Below, one piece after another: positions 53,684 to 59,615 of a DNA stretch of 64,000 nt. The stretch's first letter is position 1. The number at the start of each line of letters is the position of its first letter. The notes beneath the pieces were generated by a model, which ran no database searches, was not told where the DNA came from, and was given only the letters and a program-made list of their open reading frames with translations. The position numbers were made by a program, and so were the translations under genes. Origin of the DNA: Sphingomonas carotinifaciens (lineage in GTDB: Bacteria > Pseudomonadota > Alphaproteobacteria > Sphingomonadales > Sphingomonadaceae); the NCBI RefSeq assembly GCF_009789535.1, contig NZ_WSUT01000005.1:3052001-3116000 (forward strand). Reading direction: 5' to 3'.

Positions 53684-54373
53684 ATGGACATAAATTCATC
53701 CGCGCGTTTCCCATTCGACACGATCGGGTTCGATCTGGACGGCACGCTGCTCGACACCAGCGGCGATCTTGCCGCCGCGGTCAACCATGCCCTCGCCTCG
53801 ATCGACCGGCCGACGCTGACCGTCGAACAGGTCAAGCCGATGATCGGCGGCGGCGCGCGCCACATGCTGGCGCAGGGGCTGGCCGCGACCGGCGGCTGCG
53901 ACGAAGCGACTCTCGATATCCTCCAGCGCCGCCTGCTGGACCATTACGAGGCGAACATCACCGTCCACACCCGCCCCTTCCCCGGCGCGCTGGACGCGCT
54001 CGACGAACTGGCGGCGATGGGCGTGACCATCGGCATCATGACCAACAAGCTGGAGGCGCTGGCCGCCCGTATCCTCGCCGAACTGGGGCTTGCCGACCGC
54101 TTCGCCTGCCTGATCGGCGGCGACACGATGGGCATCGGAAAGCCTTCGCCGGTGCCCATCCAGGCGCTGGTCGACCGCTGCGGCGGCGGCCGGGCGGCCT
54201 TTGTCGGCGACTCGATCTATGACGTGCAGGCCGCCCGCGCCGCCGGGCTGCCGGTCGTCGCCTGCTCCTTCGGCTTCCTGATGCAACCGGTCGGGGAACT
54301 GGGCGCCGACGCGATCATCGACGGCTATGGCGAACTCATCCCGAAGCTGGCGCGCCTCGGCGGCGCCACTTGA
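53684..54373 (+). CDS. gph: Phosphoglycolate phosphatase (HAD family)
   Basis: Dephosphorylates 2-phosphoglycolate made by oxidative DNA-end repair. The 229 residues start at ATG 53684. The HAD motifs are GFDLDGTLLDT (Asp nucleophile, residue ~16), TNKLEALA (motif 2), GKPSPVPIQALV (Lys) and VGDSIYDVQAARAAG (motif 4). The cap domain is the helical C1 type. Its 3' end overlaps the end of the convergent nucleotidyltransferase-like gene by 38 bases. It is divergent from glmU by 63 bp. Confidence 0.93.
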   Translation: MDINSSARFPFDTIGFDLDGTLLDTSGDLAAAVNHALASIDRPTLTVEQVKPMIGGGARHMLAQGLAATGGCDEATLDILQRRLLDHYEANITVHTRPFPGALDALDELAAMGVTIGIMTNKLEALAARILAELGLADRFACLIGGDTMGIGKPSPVPIQALVDRCGGGRAAFVGDSIYDVQAARAAGLPVVACSFGFLMQPVGELGADAIIDGYGELIPKLARLGGAT

Positions 54374-55337
54374 TCCACAAATGCCGCGCCAGCATGGCGG
54401 GCGGCATCCGCAGGGCGTGCGAGCGCACATAGAAGCCGAACCGCACGCCCTGCCGCGTCTCGCGTCCCCATCCGTCGCGGGCCAGCAACCGGCGCATATA
54501 CAGGCGATCGACCGCGCCCAGCCCGGCCGTCCCCTTGCTGCCATATAGCGCTTCCGCCAGCCGTACCGCCCGCGCCACCGCACCTCCCAGCTGGTGATGC
54601 GCCGCCCGCTCGTGCAAGCCCCCGGTCCCGAACTCGCCGATCAGGCAGTGTATGTCCCACAAATTGCGCAGGCCGCCGGCCAGATCGCCATCGGCGAACA
54701 GATGCGCGGCGGCGTGGACGATCATGTCCATCGGCGCCAGTACCGACAGCCCGTTTTCCAGCGGCACTGCATCCGCGATCAGCGCGTCGGCATCGGGCGT
54801 CGGCCGCGCGGTCGGCGGCAGGATGGTGTGATGCACGTCGATCATCCGGTCCCGCTCGCGGTGGATCAGCGGCGGCAATTCATGCATCCATTGCCGATAA
54901 TAGGCGTCGTCGTAAGCGTCGGGCTTCACCCATTCCCACCCCGCCGCCAGCAACGCCGCCTCGACCGGCGCGAGAGCCTCGCGCGGCACCAATATGTCGC
55001 AGTCCCCGATGCTGCGCCCCCGCCCCGCCGCCAGCCCGGCCGCGACATAGGCGGTCCCCTTGAGCAGCACGACCGGCACGCCGAGCGGTGCGAGCGCGCG
55101 GCGCACCATCTCCGCCTCCCACAGCGCCGCCCGCCGGCCCTGCTCCGCCGAGCCCTGCGCATCCGCCAGCACCGCCGCCACCCGCGCCGGCACCGGCAAT
55201 CCCGCCAGCCGCTGCGCCAGCGTGCCCGCCAACTGCTCGGCCCGCGCAACTGTAAGGATCGCGGTCCACTGCGGCGCCTCCATCTCGGAGGCGCACGCAG
55301 GATTGCTTAGTATGCGAGTCAGCAAATTCGTCGTCAT
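54336..55337 (-). CDS. Nucleotidyltransferase-fold protein of the HprK/PqqD-like cassette
   Basis: A 333-residue protein. Its central domain matches the NTP_transf_5 type of uncharacterised nucleotidyltransferases: VVLLKGTAYVAAGLA, then RGRSIGDCDILVPREALAPVE near residues 110-128, where the GD-x-D pair are the presumed metal ligands. Further DVHHTILPP (about 170) and MDMIVHAAAHLFADGD (about 206) follow, and a basic C-terminus. It starts at ATG 55337, overlapping the stop of the kinase gene (ATGA), so it is coupled to it. Activity unknown; in the cassette it might transfer a nucleotide to a peptide or protein, which is inference only. Confidence 0.75.
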   Translation of the reverse strand: MTTNLLTRILSNPACASEMEAPQWTAILTVARAEQLAGTLAQRLAGLPVPARVAAVLADAQGSAEQGRRAALWEAEMVRRALAPLGVPVVLLKGTAYVAAGLAAGRGRSIGDCDILVPREALAPVEAALLAAGWEWVKPDAYDDAYYRQWMHELPPLIHRERDRMIDVHHTILPPTARPTPDADALIADAVPLENGLSVLAPMDMIVHAAAHLFADGDLAGGLRNLWDIHCLIGEFGTGGLHERAAHHQLGGAVARAVRLAEALYGSKGTAGLGAVDRLYMRRLLARDGWGRETRQGVRFGFYVRSHALRMPPAMLARHLWIKWRRRGAPASG

Positions 55338-56179
55338 AACGCCGCAAACAACGCCTCGACCTGCGCCACCCCCGCCGCCCCGTCCGGATAGTCGATCGCC
55401 ACCGCCGGCACCCCCTCCACCAGCCGGGTCAGCGCCCTGAACCCCGCCTCCCCAAGCATCGCATAGTTGGTGGACGCCTGGGTCAGCCGCACGAACGTCT
55501 CCGCCGCGTCCAGCCCGCGCACCGCCCCCGCAAACCCGAACCGCGGAAACACCAGCAGCGCGGGGCTCGCCCCCTCCGCCATCCGAGCCACCGCATCGCC
55601 CGGCGGGGCGACATGCCGGATCACCCCCTTGGGCGTCCCCCTCAGCATCGGCCCCAGCCTCGCCCCCTCCGCCGCCACCGCGATGCTCCCGTTCTTCAAA
55701 CTCACCGCCCGCGGAAACGGAACCACCCCCCCGCTCGCACAATCGACCAGCGCGAACTCGTCCCCCAGGAACCGCCACCCGCCCTGCCCCAGCATCAGCG
55801 CCAGCGTCGATTTCCCCGCCCCCGAAACGCCGCTCATCAGCACCGCCCGCCCGCCCCGCTCCACGACCGCGGCATGGAGCAGCAGATGCCGGCGATAGCC
55901 CAGCGCCATCTGCAGGTTCATTCCCAGCTCCGCCGCCAGCAGCCCTTGCGCCAGCGGCAGGGGCGCCGCTTCGGGCAGCCGGTAATCGCCATGGATCGCC
56001 ACCGACGGTCGCACCCAGCGCCGCCACGGCCGCAGCGCCTCCAGCCGGACGGTGAAATCGGGCACATCGACCGATGGATAGCCCTCGTAGAGCGCTGCCA
56101 GTTGCGCGATCGGCGCGCGCCAGTCCGACCCGACACGAAAGCCCACCGGCCCGACCTTCAGCGACAGGCTATGCCTCAC
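55334..56179 (-). CDS. HprK-like serine kinase (HPr-kinase-related)
   Basis: A 281-residue protein of the HPr kinase/phosphorylase fold without its N-terminal domain. The P-loop GVSGAGKST is at residues 117-125. LGDEFALVD at 138-146 carries the Asp that follows in HprK (catalytic or metal-binding). The C-terminal region includes AETFVRLTQASTNYAML and GVPAVAIDY. It is best matched by the family called 'HprK-related kinase A'. Starts at GTG 56179 overlapping the stop of the PqqD-like gene (GTGA). A PTS system is not seen nearby, so this is not a normal HPr kinase. Target unknown. Confidence 0.8.
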   Translation of the reverse strand: MRHSLSLKVGPVGFRVGSDWRAPIAQLAALYEGYPSVDVPDFTVRLEALRPWRRWVRPSVAIHGDYRLPEAAPLPLAQGLLAAELGMNLQMALGYRRHLLLHAAVVERGGRAVLMSGVSGAGKSTLALMLGQGGWRFLGDEFALVDCASGGVVPFPRAVSLKNGSIAVAAEGARLGPMLRGTPKGVIRHVAPPGDAVARMAEGASPALLVFPRFGFAGAVRGLDAAETFVRLTQASTNYAMLGEAGFRALTRLVEGVPAVAIDYPDGAAGVAQVEALFAAL

Positions 56180-56451
56180 AGCGCCTCGACCAGCCCGGTC
56201 GCGACCAGTTCGTCCAGCCGTTCGGCCAAGGTGTCGCGGTCGCCATCGGCCAGGTCATAGGCCGCGGCCAGCCGATCGAACAACGCCGCCGCGGTCAGCG
56301 GGTCGGGATACAGCATCGCCAGGATCTCGGGCGCCGGCTCGGTCAGCAGATGGGTGATGCCCGATGCGCGGTGAAACACCGCCACGAACGGATCGAGCGG
56401 TGCCGTCAGCAGCGTATCGGGCGCAGCGGCACGGTAGCGCGGCGGCGCCAC
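56176..56451 (-). CDS. PqqD-like protein of the HPr-related cassette
   Basis: A 91-residue protein from GTG 56451, which is 5 bases past the stop of the upstream gene. It reads RYRAAAPDTLLTAPLDPFVA, then HRASGITHLLTEPAPEILAML, followed by a helical region DRDTLAERLDELVATGLVEAL. The V-F-H-x-x-S-G-x-x-H-L-L pattern and helix match the PqqD/RiPP-recognition (winged helix) fold. PqqD-like proteins bind leader peptides of modified peptides. No precursor peptide is evident. It is coupled to the kinase. Confidence 0.75.
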   Translation of the reverse strand: MAPPRYRAAAPDTLLTAPLDPFVAVFHRASGITHLLTEPAPEILAMLYPDPLTAAALFDRLAAAYDLADGDRDTLAERLDELVATGLVEAL

Positions 56452-56456
56452 ACGCG

Positions 56457-56867
56457 TCAGCCGCGTGGCATCTGGAGCGAGGCGAAGCAGGTAAAACCGC
56501 CCTGCCCGCGCTGAAGCCGCCGGATATAGTTCACATAGGCGCGATTGCTGTTCCATTCGGTGCCGGGCAACTGCCCGCCCTGGAGGGCGCGGCGCACCTC
56601 CTCGCCCTTGAACGGCCGTGCGACCGGCGGAAACGCCCCCTTGGTCCGCGCCGGCACCAGACGGCCGTCCGGCGCGATATAGCTGCCCGCCCGGCCCGGA
56701 TCGGGCACCGGTATCTCGCAGGTCAGCACCGACCCCGCGCTCTGCGCCAGCGCCGGCCGGATCGACAGCACCGCGGTCGCGCCGGCCGCCCCCAGCATCA
56801 GCACCCGGCGGCGGCTGGCGCCGTCCTCGGCGTCGGGACGCATGTCGGGGGGCGTATCGTCGGTCAT
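56457..56867 (-). CDS. Tat-exported protein of the cassette, unknown function
   Basis: A 136-residue protein with start ATG 56867 (GTG 56897 also possible). A Tat signal is seen: SRRRVLMLGAAGATAVLSIR and on to ALAQ, cleaved after about residue 45. The mature part has two cysteines (LTCEIPVPDPGRAG and GGFTCFASLQ) and the pattern GTEWNSNRAYVNYIRRLQRGQGG; a YIAPDGRLVPA segment comes in the middle. I recognise no family. As first gene of the four, it may be the exported partner or target of the kinase and PqqD-like protein; that is inference. Confidence 0.6.
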   Translation of the reverse strand: MTDDTPPDMRPDAEDGASRRRVLMLGAAGATAVLSIRPALAQSAGSVLTCEIPVPDPGRAGSYIAPDGRLVPARTKGAFPPVARPFKGEEVRRALQGGQLPGTEWNSNRAYVNYIRRLQRGQGGFTCFASLQMPRG

Positions 56868-57157: not shown

Positions 57158-58348
57158 ATGGGATTCGGGATGCGCACCGTCTGGGGGGTCGTGGTGGCGT
57201 TGGTCACGGCCGGCACCGTTTTCGTCCTGGCCGGCCTGACCGCCGCGGTGATCGCGGCGGTGGGCGGGCTGGCGGCCACGCTGCTGGCGGGCAGCGGCGA
57301 GGCGGAGGAGCGCCCGCGCGTGCAGGCGCCCGTCGCCACCGATCCGCATCTGGGCGAGGTGCTGGACGCGATCGTCGAACCCGTGCTGCTGGTCGATGGC
57401 GGGCGCGTCACCATGGCCAACGCCGCGGCCCGCGACCTGCTCGGCGACCATATCGTGGACGAGGATGCGCGCGTCGCGATCCGCCACCCGGCCGCCGCCG
57501 AACGCCTCGTCGCCGACACGCCGGTGTCCGACGAGCCGGTCATGCTCGTAGGGCTCGGCGCGCCGGACCAGCGTTGGGAGATGCGCGTCGGCCAGGCCTC
57601 CGACGGACAGCGTATCGTCCACCTGATCGACCAGACCGACCAGGATGCGGCCGAGCGGATGCGGGTCGATTTCGTCGCCAATGCCAGTCACGAACTGCGC
57701 ACCCCGCTCGCCTCCATCCTCGGCTTCATCGAAACGCTGGGCGACGAGGCGGGCGAGGAACCCGCCCTGCGCGCCCGCTTCCTGAAGGTGATGTTCGACG
57801 AGGCGCGGCGCATGCAGCGGCTGGTCGAGGATCTGATCTCGCTCAGCCGGATCGAGGCGGACAAATACCGCCTGCCCGCCCAGCCGGTCGATCTCGGCCT
57901 GCTGATCGCCGATGTGTGCGAGGAACTGCGCGACTCCGGCGCGCCCCGCGCACAGGACATCAACTGCATCGTCGCGGAACAGGTGCCCGTTGCCGGCGAC
58001 CGTGCGCAATTGTCGCAGATGCTGCACAATTTGCTCGGCAATGCGATGAAATATGGTCGGCCCGACACGCCGATCGCCTTGTCGCTGGAAACCGATGCCG
58101 CCGCCGTCCGGCTGATCGTCGCCGATCAGGGAGAGGGCGTCCCCACCGTCCACTTGCCGCGCCTTACCGAGCGTTTCTACCGCGTCGATGCCGGGCGCAG
58201 CCGCACGCTGGGCGGCACCGGGCTGGGCCTCGCCATCGTCAAGCATATCGTGGAGCGGCATCGCGGCCGGCTGGAGATCGCCAGCACCGTGGGCGTCGGC
58301 ACCACCGTGACCGTGCGCCTGCCCCTGCTGACGGCACGAGGCGCGTAG
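57158..58348 (+). CDS. phoR: Phosphate regulon sensor histidine kinase
   Basis: Membrane-anchored kinase of PhoB, 396 residues from ATG 57158. Two close membrane helices (about residues 5-40, with no large periplasmic domain) are followed by a PAS-like region at 65-150 (VLDAIVEPVLLVDGGRV). The H-box is FVANASHELRTPLASILG, with N-box LLGNAMKYG, G1 DQGEGV and G2 GGTGLGLAIVKHIVERHRG. This is the PhoR type, which senses the Pst transporter state through PhoU. It precedes pstS by 220 bp holding a Pho-box-like repeat. Confidence 0.92.
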   Translation: MGFGMRTVWGVVVALVTAGTVFVLAGLTAAVIAAVGGLAATLLAGSGEAEERPRVQAPVATDPHLGEVLDAIVEPVLLVDGGRVTMANAAARDLLGDHIVDEDARVAIRHPAAAERLVADTPVSDEPVMLVGLGAPDQRWEMRVGQASDGQRIVHLIDQTDQDAAERMRVDFVANASHELRTPLASILGFIETLGDEAGEEPALRARFLKVMFDEARRMQRLVEDLISLSRIEADKYRLPAQPVDLGLLIADVCEELRDSGAPRAQDINCIVAEQVPVAGDRAQLSQMLHNLLGNAMKYGRPDTPIALSLETDAAAVRLIVADQGEGVPTVHLPRLTERFYRVDAGRSRTLGGTGLGLAIVKHIVERHRGRLEIASTVGVGTTVTVRLPLLTARGA

Positions 58349-58358
58349 CACGCGCCGA

Positions 58359-58373
58359 TGCGCCGAAGGCGCA
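58359..58373 (+). terminator. Short hairpin after phoR
   Basis: A 6-bp stem TGCGCC/GGCGCA with GAA loop, 10 bp after the phoR stop. No T-tract. Weak. Confidence 0.3.
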
Positions 58374-58410
58374 CGTGCCGGCACGGCCGGCATGGCACCG
58401 CCATGACCGA

Positions 58411-58435
58411 CGATACGGGACTTGATCCCGTATCG
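58411..58435 (+). terminator. Perfect hairpin between phoR and the Pho boxes
   Basis: The 10-bp arms CGATACGGGA and TCCCGTATCG have a 5-base loop. There is no T-run, so a Rho-linked or repeat-type structure is possible. It lies just before the pst promoter region. Confidence 0.45.
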
Positions 58436-58477
58436 GGCCGCAGAAGAAAGAAGATGCGCGCTCGCCAAGGAAGGCGC

Positions 58478-58517
58478 TGTCACAAAAGGGTAACCGCAAT
58501 GTCACACAAGGGTTGCC
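58478..58517 (+). promoter_or_regulatory. Tandem Pho-box-like repeat upstream of pstS
   Basis: TGTCACAAAAGGGTAACC (58478-58495) and TGTCACACAAGGGTTGCC (58500-58517) match at 15 of 18 positions and start 22 bp apart. Within each, the two half-sites are 11 bases apart, the spacing of the Pho box. It ends 51 bp before the pstS start. Confidence 0.75.
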
Positions 58518-58568
58518 AAGCGGTGGCAGCGACAGGTTCGCACCATCCGGTGAGCCCCAAGGACCTTC

Positions 58569-59615
58569 ATGCGCATCCCCTGCCTCATCGCCGCGGCGCT
58601 CGCGCTGGCGGCTTGCCAAGATCAGGCCAATGGCGGTGGTGCGGGCACGCGTGACCAGATCGCGGCGGTCGGGTCGTCCACCGTCTATCCCTTTACCACC
58701 ATCGTCGCCGAACGCTTCGTCGCCAACAATCCGGATGCCCGGGCCCCGGTGATCGAATCGACCGGCACCGGTGCCGGCATGAAGCTGTTCTGTGCCGGGA
58801 TCGGCGCCGGGCACCCCGACCTCGTCGATGCCTCGCGCCGGATGAAGGCCAGCGAATATGCCGCCTGCGCCCGCCACGGCGCGCGCGAACTGCTCGAAAT
58901 CCAGATCGGCATCGACGGCATCGCCTTTGCGCAGGCGCATGGCGGACAGCGGCTGCAACTGGGCGCCGCCGACATCTACAAAGCGCTGGCCGCGCGTCCC
59001 GGCGGCCGGCCGAACCGCACGCGCACCTGGACCGATGTCGACCCCCGCCTGCCCGCCATCCCGATCCAGGTCTATGGCCCGCCCGCGACCAGCGGCACCC
59101 GCGACGCGCTCGCCGACCTCATCATGGTCAAGGGGTGCGAGGCGACGAACCCGCGTGCCGCCACGCTCGCCCATAGCGATCCCGCCGCGCATCTCACGCT
59201 GTGCACCGCGGTGCGCGAGGACGGCGCCTATATCGACGCCGGCGAGAACGACAATCTGATCGTGCAGAAGCTGCAGTCGAACCCCGATGCGATCGGCGTC
59301 TTCGGCTACAGCTATCTGGAGGAGAATGCCGGCACCGTCGACGGTGTGGCCATAGATGGCGTCGCCCCCAGCTACGACACGATCGCCGATGGCCGCTATC
59401 CGGGCTCGCGGCCGCTCTACCTTTATGTGAAGAAGGCGCATCTCAGCGCCATTCCGGGCCTGCGCGATTTCCTGAAGCTGTATGCCGCGAACTGGGGCCG
59501 GGGCGGCCCGCTCGTCCGGCGCGGCCTGATCGCCTCGCCGCCCGCGGTGCAGGCGCGCGCCGCCGCGGTGATCGCCGATGAAATCCCGCTCGATCCCGGC
59601 GCGCTGCACGGATGA
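58569..59615 (+). CDS. pstS: Phosphate ABC transporter substrate-binding lipoprotein
   Basis: Periplasmic phosphate receptor of 348 residues. The signal ends with the lipobox ALAAC (Cys16), so it is probably lipid-anchored. VGSSTVYPFTTIVAERF is the first phosphate-contacting loop, STGTGAGMKLFC the second, and PATSGTRDALADL the third; the family Asp and Ser are present. PstS ligand loops use Thr and Ser as here. It is the first gene of pstSCAB-phoU, and the stop overlaps the pstC ATG. Confidence 0.95.
   Translation: MRIPCLIAAALALAACQDQANGGGAGTRDQIAAVGSSTVYPFTTIVAERFVANNPDARAPVIESTGTGAGMKLFCAGIGAGHPDLVDASRRMKASEYAACARHGARELLEIQIGIDGIAFAQAHGGQRLQLGAADIYKALAARPGGRPNRTRTWTDVDPRLPAIPIQVYGPPATSGTRDALADLIMVKGCEATNPRAATLAHSDPAAHLTLCTAVREDGAYIDAGENDNLIVQKLQSNPDAIGVFGYSYLEENAGTVDGVAIDGVAPSYDTIADGRYPGSRPLYLYVKKAHLSAIPGLRDFLKLYAANWGRGGPLVRRGLIASPPAVQARAAAVIADEIPLDPGALHG

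What the first reader, a model, noticed from the sequence alone, without database searches (positions are those of the whole stretch)
54336..56867. Four-gene coupled cassette: nucleotidyltransferase, HprK-like kinase, PqqD-like protein and Tat-exported protein
The genes overlap at ATGA and GTGA or lie 5 bases apart, so they are made together. The kinase has an HprK P-loop and Asp motif but no HPr or PTS gene nearby. The PqqD-like protein is the type that binds leader peptides, and an NTP-transferase-fold protein completes it. I recall the kinase and PqqD-like families being described as an 'HPr-rel-A' system with no known product. The first gene is exported by Tat and might be target or partner. 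No classical precursor peptide was seen.
Basis: partly seen in the sequence, partly recalled or inferred. Interest (0 to 1): 0.78.

Follow-up and report, generated by a model that had tools for sequence, protein, structure and literature searches.

The report
Exported protein with its own modification enzymes
Next to three uncharacterised enzymes of the kind that decorate peptides, this Sphingomonas-type bacterium carries a small exported protein that, in the genomes searched, occurs only together with the enzymes, which suggests it is the missing target they modify.

Summary
The four coupled genes are real. They encode TIGR04353 (PqqD_rel_X), TIGR04352 (HprK_rel_A), an NTP_transf_5 nucleotidyltransferase (PF14907), and first a 136-aa twin-arginine-signal protein that no NCBIfam or Pfam model covers.

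New here: that first protein is a regular fourth member. Across distant genomes it diverges to 17% mean column identity but keeps the twin arginine, a Ser and a Cys after the signal, and [ST]-C-hydrophobic-x-S near the C-terminus. A profile of it hits 88 of 196 genomes of the order, all 88 with the kinase, and none of 106 without it. The two kinase genomes it misses carry such a protein by eye. A second profile hits 39 of 398 phylum genomes, all kinase-positive. This holds in ten genomes where the gene has left the kinase; in four of them it kept pqqD, in four pqqD stayed with the kinase.

Best reading: lasso-type tailoring enzymes, without lasso cyclase or protease, act on an exported protein. 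PqqD binds its leader, the kinase phosphorylates the Ser of the C-terminal CxxS, the nucleotidyltransferase adds a glycosyl or nucleotidyl group, Tat exports it. The partnership is well supported; site, chemistry and function are inferred. A second class without CxxS forms one kinase clade.

The parts
56457..56867 (-). Tat-signal protein, 136 aa: candidate substrate of the cassette; no curated family model
56805..56813 (-). twin-arginine motif (residues 19-21, RRR) of the signal
   Evidence: R20 at 100% of 86 rows; the second Arg invariant in 30 rows; position checked
56718..56732 (-). S46-x3-C50, first conserved Ser and Cys just after the signal
   Evidence: both invariant
56478..56489 (-). 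C127-F-A-S130, the C-terminal C-x-x-S motif, proposed modification site at S130
   Evidence: both invariant; Ser or Thr just before the Cys in 107 of 108 loci
56176..56451 (-). PqqD-like protein, TIGR04353 PqqD_rel_X (proposed leader-binding partner)
   Evidence: 58.5 bits, cut-off 35
55334..56179 (-). HprK-related kinase A, TIGR04352; H102, P-loop K123, D140, E141 invariant
   Evidence: 224.9 bits, cut-off 200
54336..55337 (-). NTP_transf_5 nucleotidyltransferase, PF14907; D112, D114, D167 invariant
   Evidence: 171.6 bits; fold model pLDDT 94.6

Best explanation
The cassette is a RiPP-style protein-modification system whose substrate is the Tat-exported protein encoded first. The PqqD-like protein binds the N-terminal leader/signal of the precursor and presents it. 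The HprK-related kinase phosphorylates a serine, most likely the one in the C-terminal [ST]-C-hydrophobic-x-S motif. The NTP_transf_5 enzyme then adds a glycosyl or nucleotidyl group to that phosphate. The Tat machinery exports the finished protein, where the two conserved cysteines probably pair. Shown here: families, gene coupling, near-perfect co-occurrence of the Tat protein with the kinase in the genomes searched, the conserved motif, and conserved catalytic residues. Inferred: that it is the substrate, the PqqD contact, the modified residue, the chemistry, the order of steps, the disulfide and the Tat route. Not known: what the exported product does.
For: Co-occurrence: profile A2 hits 88 of 196 order genomes and all 88 have the kinase; 0 of 106 kinase-negative genomes are hit. 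Profile A3 hits 39 of 398 phylum genomes, all kinase-positive. It holds where the gene is away from the kinase: G035, G080, G097, G119, G167, G053, G589, G549, G497, G538. Motif: in 30 proteins at 17% mean column identity only five columns are invariant: the second Arg, the Ser and Cys after the signal, and the Cys and Ser of C-x-x-S. A pqqD-like gene sits beside the relocated Tat gene in L277 (G053), L278 (G589), L280 (G497) and L281 (G538), beside the inverted one in L283 (G599) and beside a second copy in L282 (G643). Catalytic residues are invariant in kinase and nucleotidyltransferase. Precedent: HprK-like kinases phosphorylate Ser of lasso precursors, a PqqD-type B1 accelerates this (BsfK/BsfB1, PMC10368454, passages), and the nucleotidyltransferase PsmN adds one or two hexoses to the phospho-Ser (PMC9266682 and PMC8498205, passages).
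Against: No biochemical evidence exists for any step. Ten kinase loci, in one kinase clade, have a different Tat-type protein without a C-terminal CxxS, so CxxS cannot be the site in all. Two of the 39 A3 hits (G567 = L111, G590 = L115) also end without CxxS. In the four fetched genomes of the group G035/G080/G119/G167 it is pqqD that stayed with the kinase and the Tat gene that left alone; in G549 (L279) and for the solo extra copies in family f5 no pqqD was found beside the Tat gene. So Tat and pqqD are not always a pair. The reported C-terminal lasso phosphorylations are on the last residue, whereas here the Ser is 1-49 residues from the end, median 7. Whether PsmN belongs to PF14907 is recalled, not tested. 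The fold of the Tat protein is unresolved (pLDDT 65).
Confidence: 0.57

Rival explanations
1. The enzymes modify something else (a sugar, lipid or polysaccharide precursor), and the Tat protein is a periplasmic partner that uses, binds or senses the product.
For: In L129 the cassette lies among XrtA/PEP-CTERM polysaccharide genes (TIGR03108 831.3 bits, TIGR03087 492.8, TIGR03088 426.5, all over cut-off; the only locus of that kind whose neighbours I scanned more than singly). HprK-like and NT folds could act on small molecules; fold matches of the nucleotidyltransferase include ANT(2'')-Ia, solved with tobramycin. In four genomes the Tat gene has left all three enzyme genes.
Against: A PqqD-type protein implies a peptide client, and in four genomes it went with the Tat gene rather than with the kinase. 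Over distant relatives the protein's interior is not conserved, only signal and motif are, which is odd for a binding protein.
Confidence: 0.22
2. The Tat protein is a RiPP precursor in the strict sense: the signal/leader is cut off and a short modified peptide is released as a signalling or antimicrobial product.
For: Only leader and a Cys...C-x-x-S core are conserved over distant relatives. L246 encodes an 82-aa version whose post-signal part is only about 18-20 residues, by eye. PqqD, kinase and nucleotidyltransferase are RiPP-type enzymes.
Against: The 108 loci measured encode 93-298 aa, large for a core peptide. Among close relatives the whole chain is conserved (71 rows at 59%, 32 rows at 70% mean column identity). 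No lasso-type leader protease (PF13471) was found in the genome.
Confidence: 0.12
3. A nutrient-sensing HPr/PTS-type phosphorelay: the kinase phosphorylates an HPr-like protein and controls phosphate or carbon use.
For: HprK-like P-loop; the locus abuts phoR-like and pstS-like genes, also in L074.
Against: The kinase scores 21.4 bits against TIGR00679 (cut-off 240). The genome has an HPr gene at about C5:2.113 Mb with, by eye, an EIIA-like ORF beside it and a second HprK-like match 1.6 kb away, about 1 Mb from the cassette.
Confidence: 0.03

Closest known systems
HPr-rel-A families of NCBIfam (TIGR04352 HprK-related kinase A, TIGR04353 PqqD family peptide chaperone)
   Same: Both enzymes score over the curated cut-offs; adjacent genes with an NTP_transf_5 gene.
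   Different: The one-line model descriptions that I saw name no substrate. The Tat-signal protein found here as fourth partner has no dedicated NCBIfam model: of 30 + 24 members scanned only general Tat-signal models and single stray hits came up. Pfam gave one sub-threshold Tat-signal hit for the window protein and single weak hits in the 24 A3 members.
Tailoring genes of phosphorylated/glycosylated lasso peptides (PadeK, ThcoK, SyanK, PsmK/PsmN, BsfK/BsfB1)
   Same: HprK-like kinase, PqqD-type recognition protein and nucleotidyltransferase acting on a ribosomal precursor (papers seen as passages). The PqqD profile's two best PDB hits are the lasso B1 proteins TfuB1 and TbiB1, but not significant (E 0.068 and 0.19). 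The kinase has H, P-loop and D-E where BsfK has H, P-loop and D-D.
   Different: No cyclase over cut-off and no B2-type protease found in the genome; the proposed target is a Tat-type protein, 93-298 aa in 108 loci, not a short peptide.
Canonical HPr kinase/phosphorylase
   Same: Weak similarity over the P-loop region (TIGR00679 21.4 bits; PDB 2qmh/1jb1, E 0.0006 by profile).
   Different: Far under the family cut-off; the genome's HPr genes and a second HprK-like match lie elsewhere.

Membership tests
HPr-rel-A system | HprK-related kinase A over curated cut-off | tested here: met
   TIGR04352 224.9 bits, cut-off 200
HPr-rel-A system | PqqD family peptide chaperone over curated cut-off | tested here: met
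   TIGR04353 58.5 bits, cut-off 35
HPr-rel-A system | PqqD and nucleotidyltransferase genes beside the kinase in relatives | tested here: met
   one locus per genome: pqqD at 123 and NTP_transf_5 at 121 of 136 kinase loci, short contigs included; 187 and 182 of 204 when duplicates are kept
HPr kinase/phosphorylase | TIGR00679 over cut-off | tested here: not met
   21.4 bits against 240
HPr kinase/phosphorylase | linked to an HPr gene | tested here: not met
   own genome: HPr domains lie about 1 and 2 Mb away
Lasso peptide biosynthesis | lasso cyclase | tested here: not met
   own genome, NF033535: no match over cut-off; best 174 bits of 525, at C5:1870242, far from the cassette; E. coli and others ring at that level too
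Lasso peptide biosynthesis | leader protease B2 (PF13471) | tested here: not met
   no match in own genome
Lasso peptide biosynthesis | HprK-like kinase with H/K/D/D catalytic residues | tested here: inconclusive
   H102, K123, D140 invariant in 32 kinases; the last acidic residue is Glu141, not Asp
Tat substrates | twin-arginine n-region, hydrophobic stretch, A-x-A site | tested here: met
   RRR at 19-21, hydrophobic stretch, ALA at 39-41, by eye; TatC present in the genome. No signal predictor was available
Tat substrates | actual export by Tat | not testable with these tools
   needs an export assay

The most novel reading that the evidence does not exclude
A widespread bacterial protein-modification pathway, so far without a known target, decorates a dedicated family of Tat-exported proteins on the serine of a C-terminal [ST]-C-hydrophobic-x-S motif with a phospho-glycosyl or phospho-nucleotidyl group before export, using lasso-peptide-type enzymes without making a lasso peptide. 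In some lineages the product may anchor or prime a cell-surface polysaccharide.
Probability: 0.4. Interest if true: 0.88.

Novelty: new variant of a known kind. Interest (0 to 1): 0.77.

Why it matters
HPr-rel-A enzymes are named in databases and common in this order (kinase over cut-off in 88 of 196 genomes), yet searches of open-licence PMC text for 'HPr-rel-A', 'HprK-related kinase A' and the model accessions found no paper, and seven searches by term combinations found nothing beyond the lasso-peptide papers. Identifying a likely substrate family, and one residue to test, turns an orphan system into a mass-spectrometry experiment. It would also extend RiPP-type recognition and tailoring from short peptides to exported proteins, and would explain why Tat, which carries folded cargo, is used: the modification needs cytoplasmic nucleotides (inference).

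Tried and rejected
HPr/PTS relay: rejected on family scores and genome position. Lasso peptide cluster: rejected, no cyclase over cut-off and no B2-type protease. Hidden short precursor upstream: only the end of an ORF antisense to phoR came up, not pursued.

My first gene callers failed in many loci and were rewritten. Rows left out: the one-locus-per-genome set holds 137 of the 144 kinase-positive genomes (not G045, G051, G097, G171, G180, G632, G647), and L077, with the kinase cut off, dropped out, leaving 136. For the tree I left out 36 loci that I took for near relatives of kept ones, and L065. For 23 of the 136 loci the substrate class was set by hand before the tree.

On re-checking I lowered the best explanation from 0.60 to 0.57 and raised the first rival from 0.20 to 0.22, because in four genomes pqqD stayed with the kinase when the Tat gene left, which I had not weighed.
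Full report
What is there. On the minus strand of the window four genes are translationally coupled: a twin-arginine-signal protein (56867..56457), a PqqD-like protein (56451..56176), an HprK-like kinase (56179..55334) and a nucleotidyltransferase (55337..54336), with a 5-base gap, a GTGA overlap and an ATGA overlap. NCBIfam names the second and third as the HPr-rel-A PqqD family peptide chaperone and HprK-related kinase A, both over the curated cut-off. Pfam names the fourth NTP_transf_5. The first has no family. The best named relatives of the kinase are from Sphingomonas. Upstream and divergent is a phoR-like gene, then a pstS-like gene, both under the cut-offs of the best models; downstream are a HAD-phosphatase-like ORF and, by eye only, glmU and glmS.

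Spread of the cassette. HprK_rel_A is over its cut-off in 88 of 196 genomes of the order, 8 of 289 of the class draw and 61 of 398 of the phylum draw. In the order 184 of 196 genomes have some match at E <= 0.001, but after G093 (197.7 bits) and G006 (187.8) the next best match has 54 bits; I count 90 genomes as kinase-positive and 106 as negative. At one locus per genome, pqqD was found at 123 and the nucleotidyltransferase gene at 121 of 136 kinase loci, some on short contigs.

The first gene is part of it. By sequence, relatives of the window's Tat protein are found in 32 of 196 order genomes at E <= 1e-8, and all 32 have the kinase; inside the window's own family they occur in 31 of the 32 kinase-positive genomes. 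In 80 loci with record titles, 75 carry it upstream of the kinase within 5.5 kb; of the five misses one (L207) begins at the kinase and four (L169, L185, L199, L202) lack it there. In more distant genomes the gene in that place has diverged but is of the same kind. Of 136 loci (137 of 144 kinase-positive genomes fetched, L077 dropped), 120 have a signal-bearing ORF just upstream, and in 104 of those 120 the ORF picked by rule has C-x-x-S in its last 45 residues. As background, among 1034 called genes of 80-330 aa in the loci of 7 kb or more, 119 do; 96 of these are among the 139 genes with an RR signal, the Tat proteins included, which leaves 23 of 895. By eye L022 and L026 also have the motif, further from the end. 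No such gene was found near the kinase in, for example, L084, L231, L122, L123 and L065.

The motif. In 30 such proteins with 17% mean column identity the only invariant columns are the second Arg, a Ser and a Cys after the signal, and the Cys and Ser of C-x-x-S (A2). In 86 rows of close relatives of the window protein R20, L23, G26, S46, C50, Y111, Y114, L118, G124, C127 and S130 are at 100% (row count). In 24 proteins from other loci, whose named relatives are Magnetococcales, a first Cys is invariant and the C, W and S of C-W-x-S are at 90% or more (A3). Over 108 loci the residue before the Cys is Ser or Thr in 107, the residue after it hydrophobic or aromatic in 108, and the Ser is 1-49 residues from the C-terminus, median 7 (that set was picked by having C-x-x-S, so only the neighbours are informative).

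Co-occurrence. The A2 profile hits 88 of 196 order genomes at E <= 1e-4. All 88 have the kinase: 87 over the cut-off, and G093. The kinase-positive genomes without a hit are G036 and G006, and both carry such a protein upstream of the kinase by eye. None of the 106 kinase-negative genomes is hit. The A3 profile hits 39 of 398 phylum genomes, all 39 kinase-positive. Two of these, G567 and G590, match mainly over the signal, and their proteins (L111, L115) end without C-x-x-S. The 22 kinase-positive genomes without an A3 hit are 11 of the window's family, nine of class II below (G492, G495, G718, G720, G761, G778, G780, G786, G809), and G742 and G647, unassigned. Caution: by my tally 29 of the 88 and 23 of the 39 positives contributed a row to the profile, so the informative parts are the other 59 and 16, the absence of hits in kinase-negative genomes, and the copies away from the kinase. 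The hypergeometric values ignore shared ancestry and are not used as probabilities. By group code, presence differs within genus g10 (G071, G152, G180 against G083, G131, G181), and kinase and Tat protein vary together there.

Copies away from the kinase. Ten genomes have the Tat gene elsewhere. In G053, G589, G497 and G538 it is followed by its own pqqD-like gene (HMM matches), while none was found in the stretch fetched around the kinase. In G549 no pqqD was found in the fetched stretch at either place (L123, L279). In G035, G080, G119 and G167 (G097 of the same kind was not fetched) pqqD stayed with the kinase, and the Tat gene stands, by eye, next to a sensor-kinase-like gene, L091, L093, L095, L097. 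In G599 the Tat-pqqD pair is inverted beside the kinase, and G643 has a second Tat-pqqD pair. So pqqD goes with the Tat gene in some lineages and with the enzymes in another; the Tat protein itself is kept in all ten. Extra solo Tat copies in family f5 (L270-L276, L284) have no pqqD match; seven of these eight (not L276) sit beside a sigma-factor-like gene, identified by Pfam in L271 only.

Two substrate classes. L098, L105, L106, L109, L110, L113, L114, L116, L117 and L118 have a Tat-type protein with a motif like [ST]PG-aromatic, with departures (L098, L109, L110), and no C-terminal C-x-x-S; the class was defined by eye. In a tree of 99 kinases these ten and three unlabelled rows form one group (SH-aLRT 95), and the class I/II label needs one change when unlabelled rows are left out. 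This fits kinases adapted to substrate classes, but shared descent of the whole cassette would give the same picture.

How it most likely works. In lasso clusters an HprK-like kinase phosphorylates a precursor Ser, in the earlier cases the C-terminal one; the PqqD-type protein BsfB1 speeds up the kinase BsfK; and PsmN, annotated as a nucleotidyltransferase, puts one or two hexoses on the phospho-Ser, though nucleotidylation followed by a host enzyme was not excluded (passages of PMC9266682, PMC8498205 and PMC10368454). The window has the same three enzyme kinds, in a genome without lasso cyclase over cut-off or B2-type protease, and with a dedicated exported protein. I conclude that they modify that protein before Tat export, most likely at S130. 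The partnership I hold at about 0.85, the chemistry at about 0.5, the exact site at about 0.5. The function of the product is open. In L129 the cassette lies among XrtA/PEP-CTERM polysaccharide genes, in the window and L074 beside phosphate-uptake-like genes; both are hints only.

Known or new. The enzyme families are curated. No paper in open-licence PMC text holds 'HPr-rel-A', 'HprK-related kinase A', or TIGR04352, TIGR04353, PF14907 or NTP_transf_5; the other seven searches, by term combinations, found nothing beyond lasso-peptide papers. Subscription papers and preprints were not searched. The exported substrate family and its link to the system appear to be new.

Noticed in passing
57158-59615: The Tat gene is divergent from a phoR-like gene followed by a pstS-like gene; the same neighbours are seen in L074, and by eye a sensor-kinase-like gene stands beside the Tat gene in genomes where it has left the kinase (L091, L093, L095, L097). 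A link to phosphate limitation is possible and untested.
   Followed up: partly
L129:3048-12658: In this genome the cassette sits inside an XrtA/PEP-CTERM polysaccharide cluster (TIGR03108, TIGR03087, TIGR03088 over cut-off).
   Followed up: partly
L270-L276, L284: Family f5 genomes carry extra solo Tat-CxxS genes away from the cassette; in seven of these eight loci (not L276) they sit beside a sigma-factor-like gene (Pfam match in L271 only).
   Followed up: partly
L246: An 82-aa minimal version of the Tat protein: signal plus about 18-20 residues that still hold Cys and C-x-x-S.
   Followed up: no
L098, L105, L106, L109, L110, L113, L114, L116, L117, L118: A second class of Tat-type protein beside the same kinase, with a motif like [ST]PG-aromatic instead of C-x-x-S.
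   Followed up: partly
54336-54373: The nucleotidyltransferase gene overlaps the 3' end of the convergent HAD-phosphatase-like ORF by 38 bases; the two also overlap convergently in L074.
   Followed up: no
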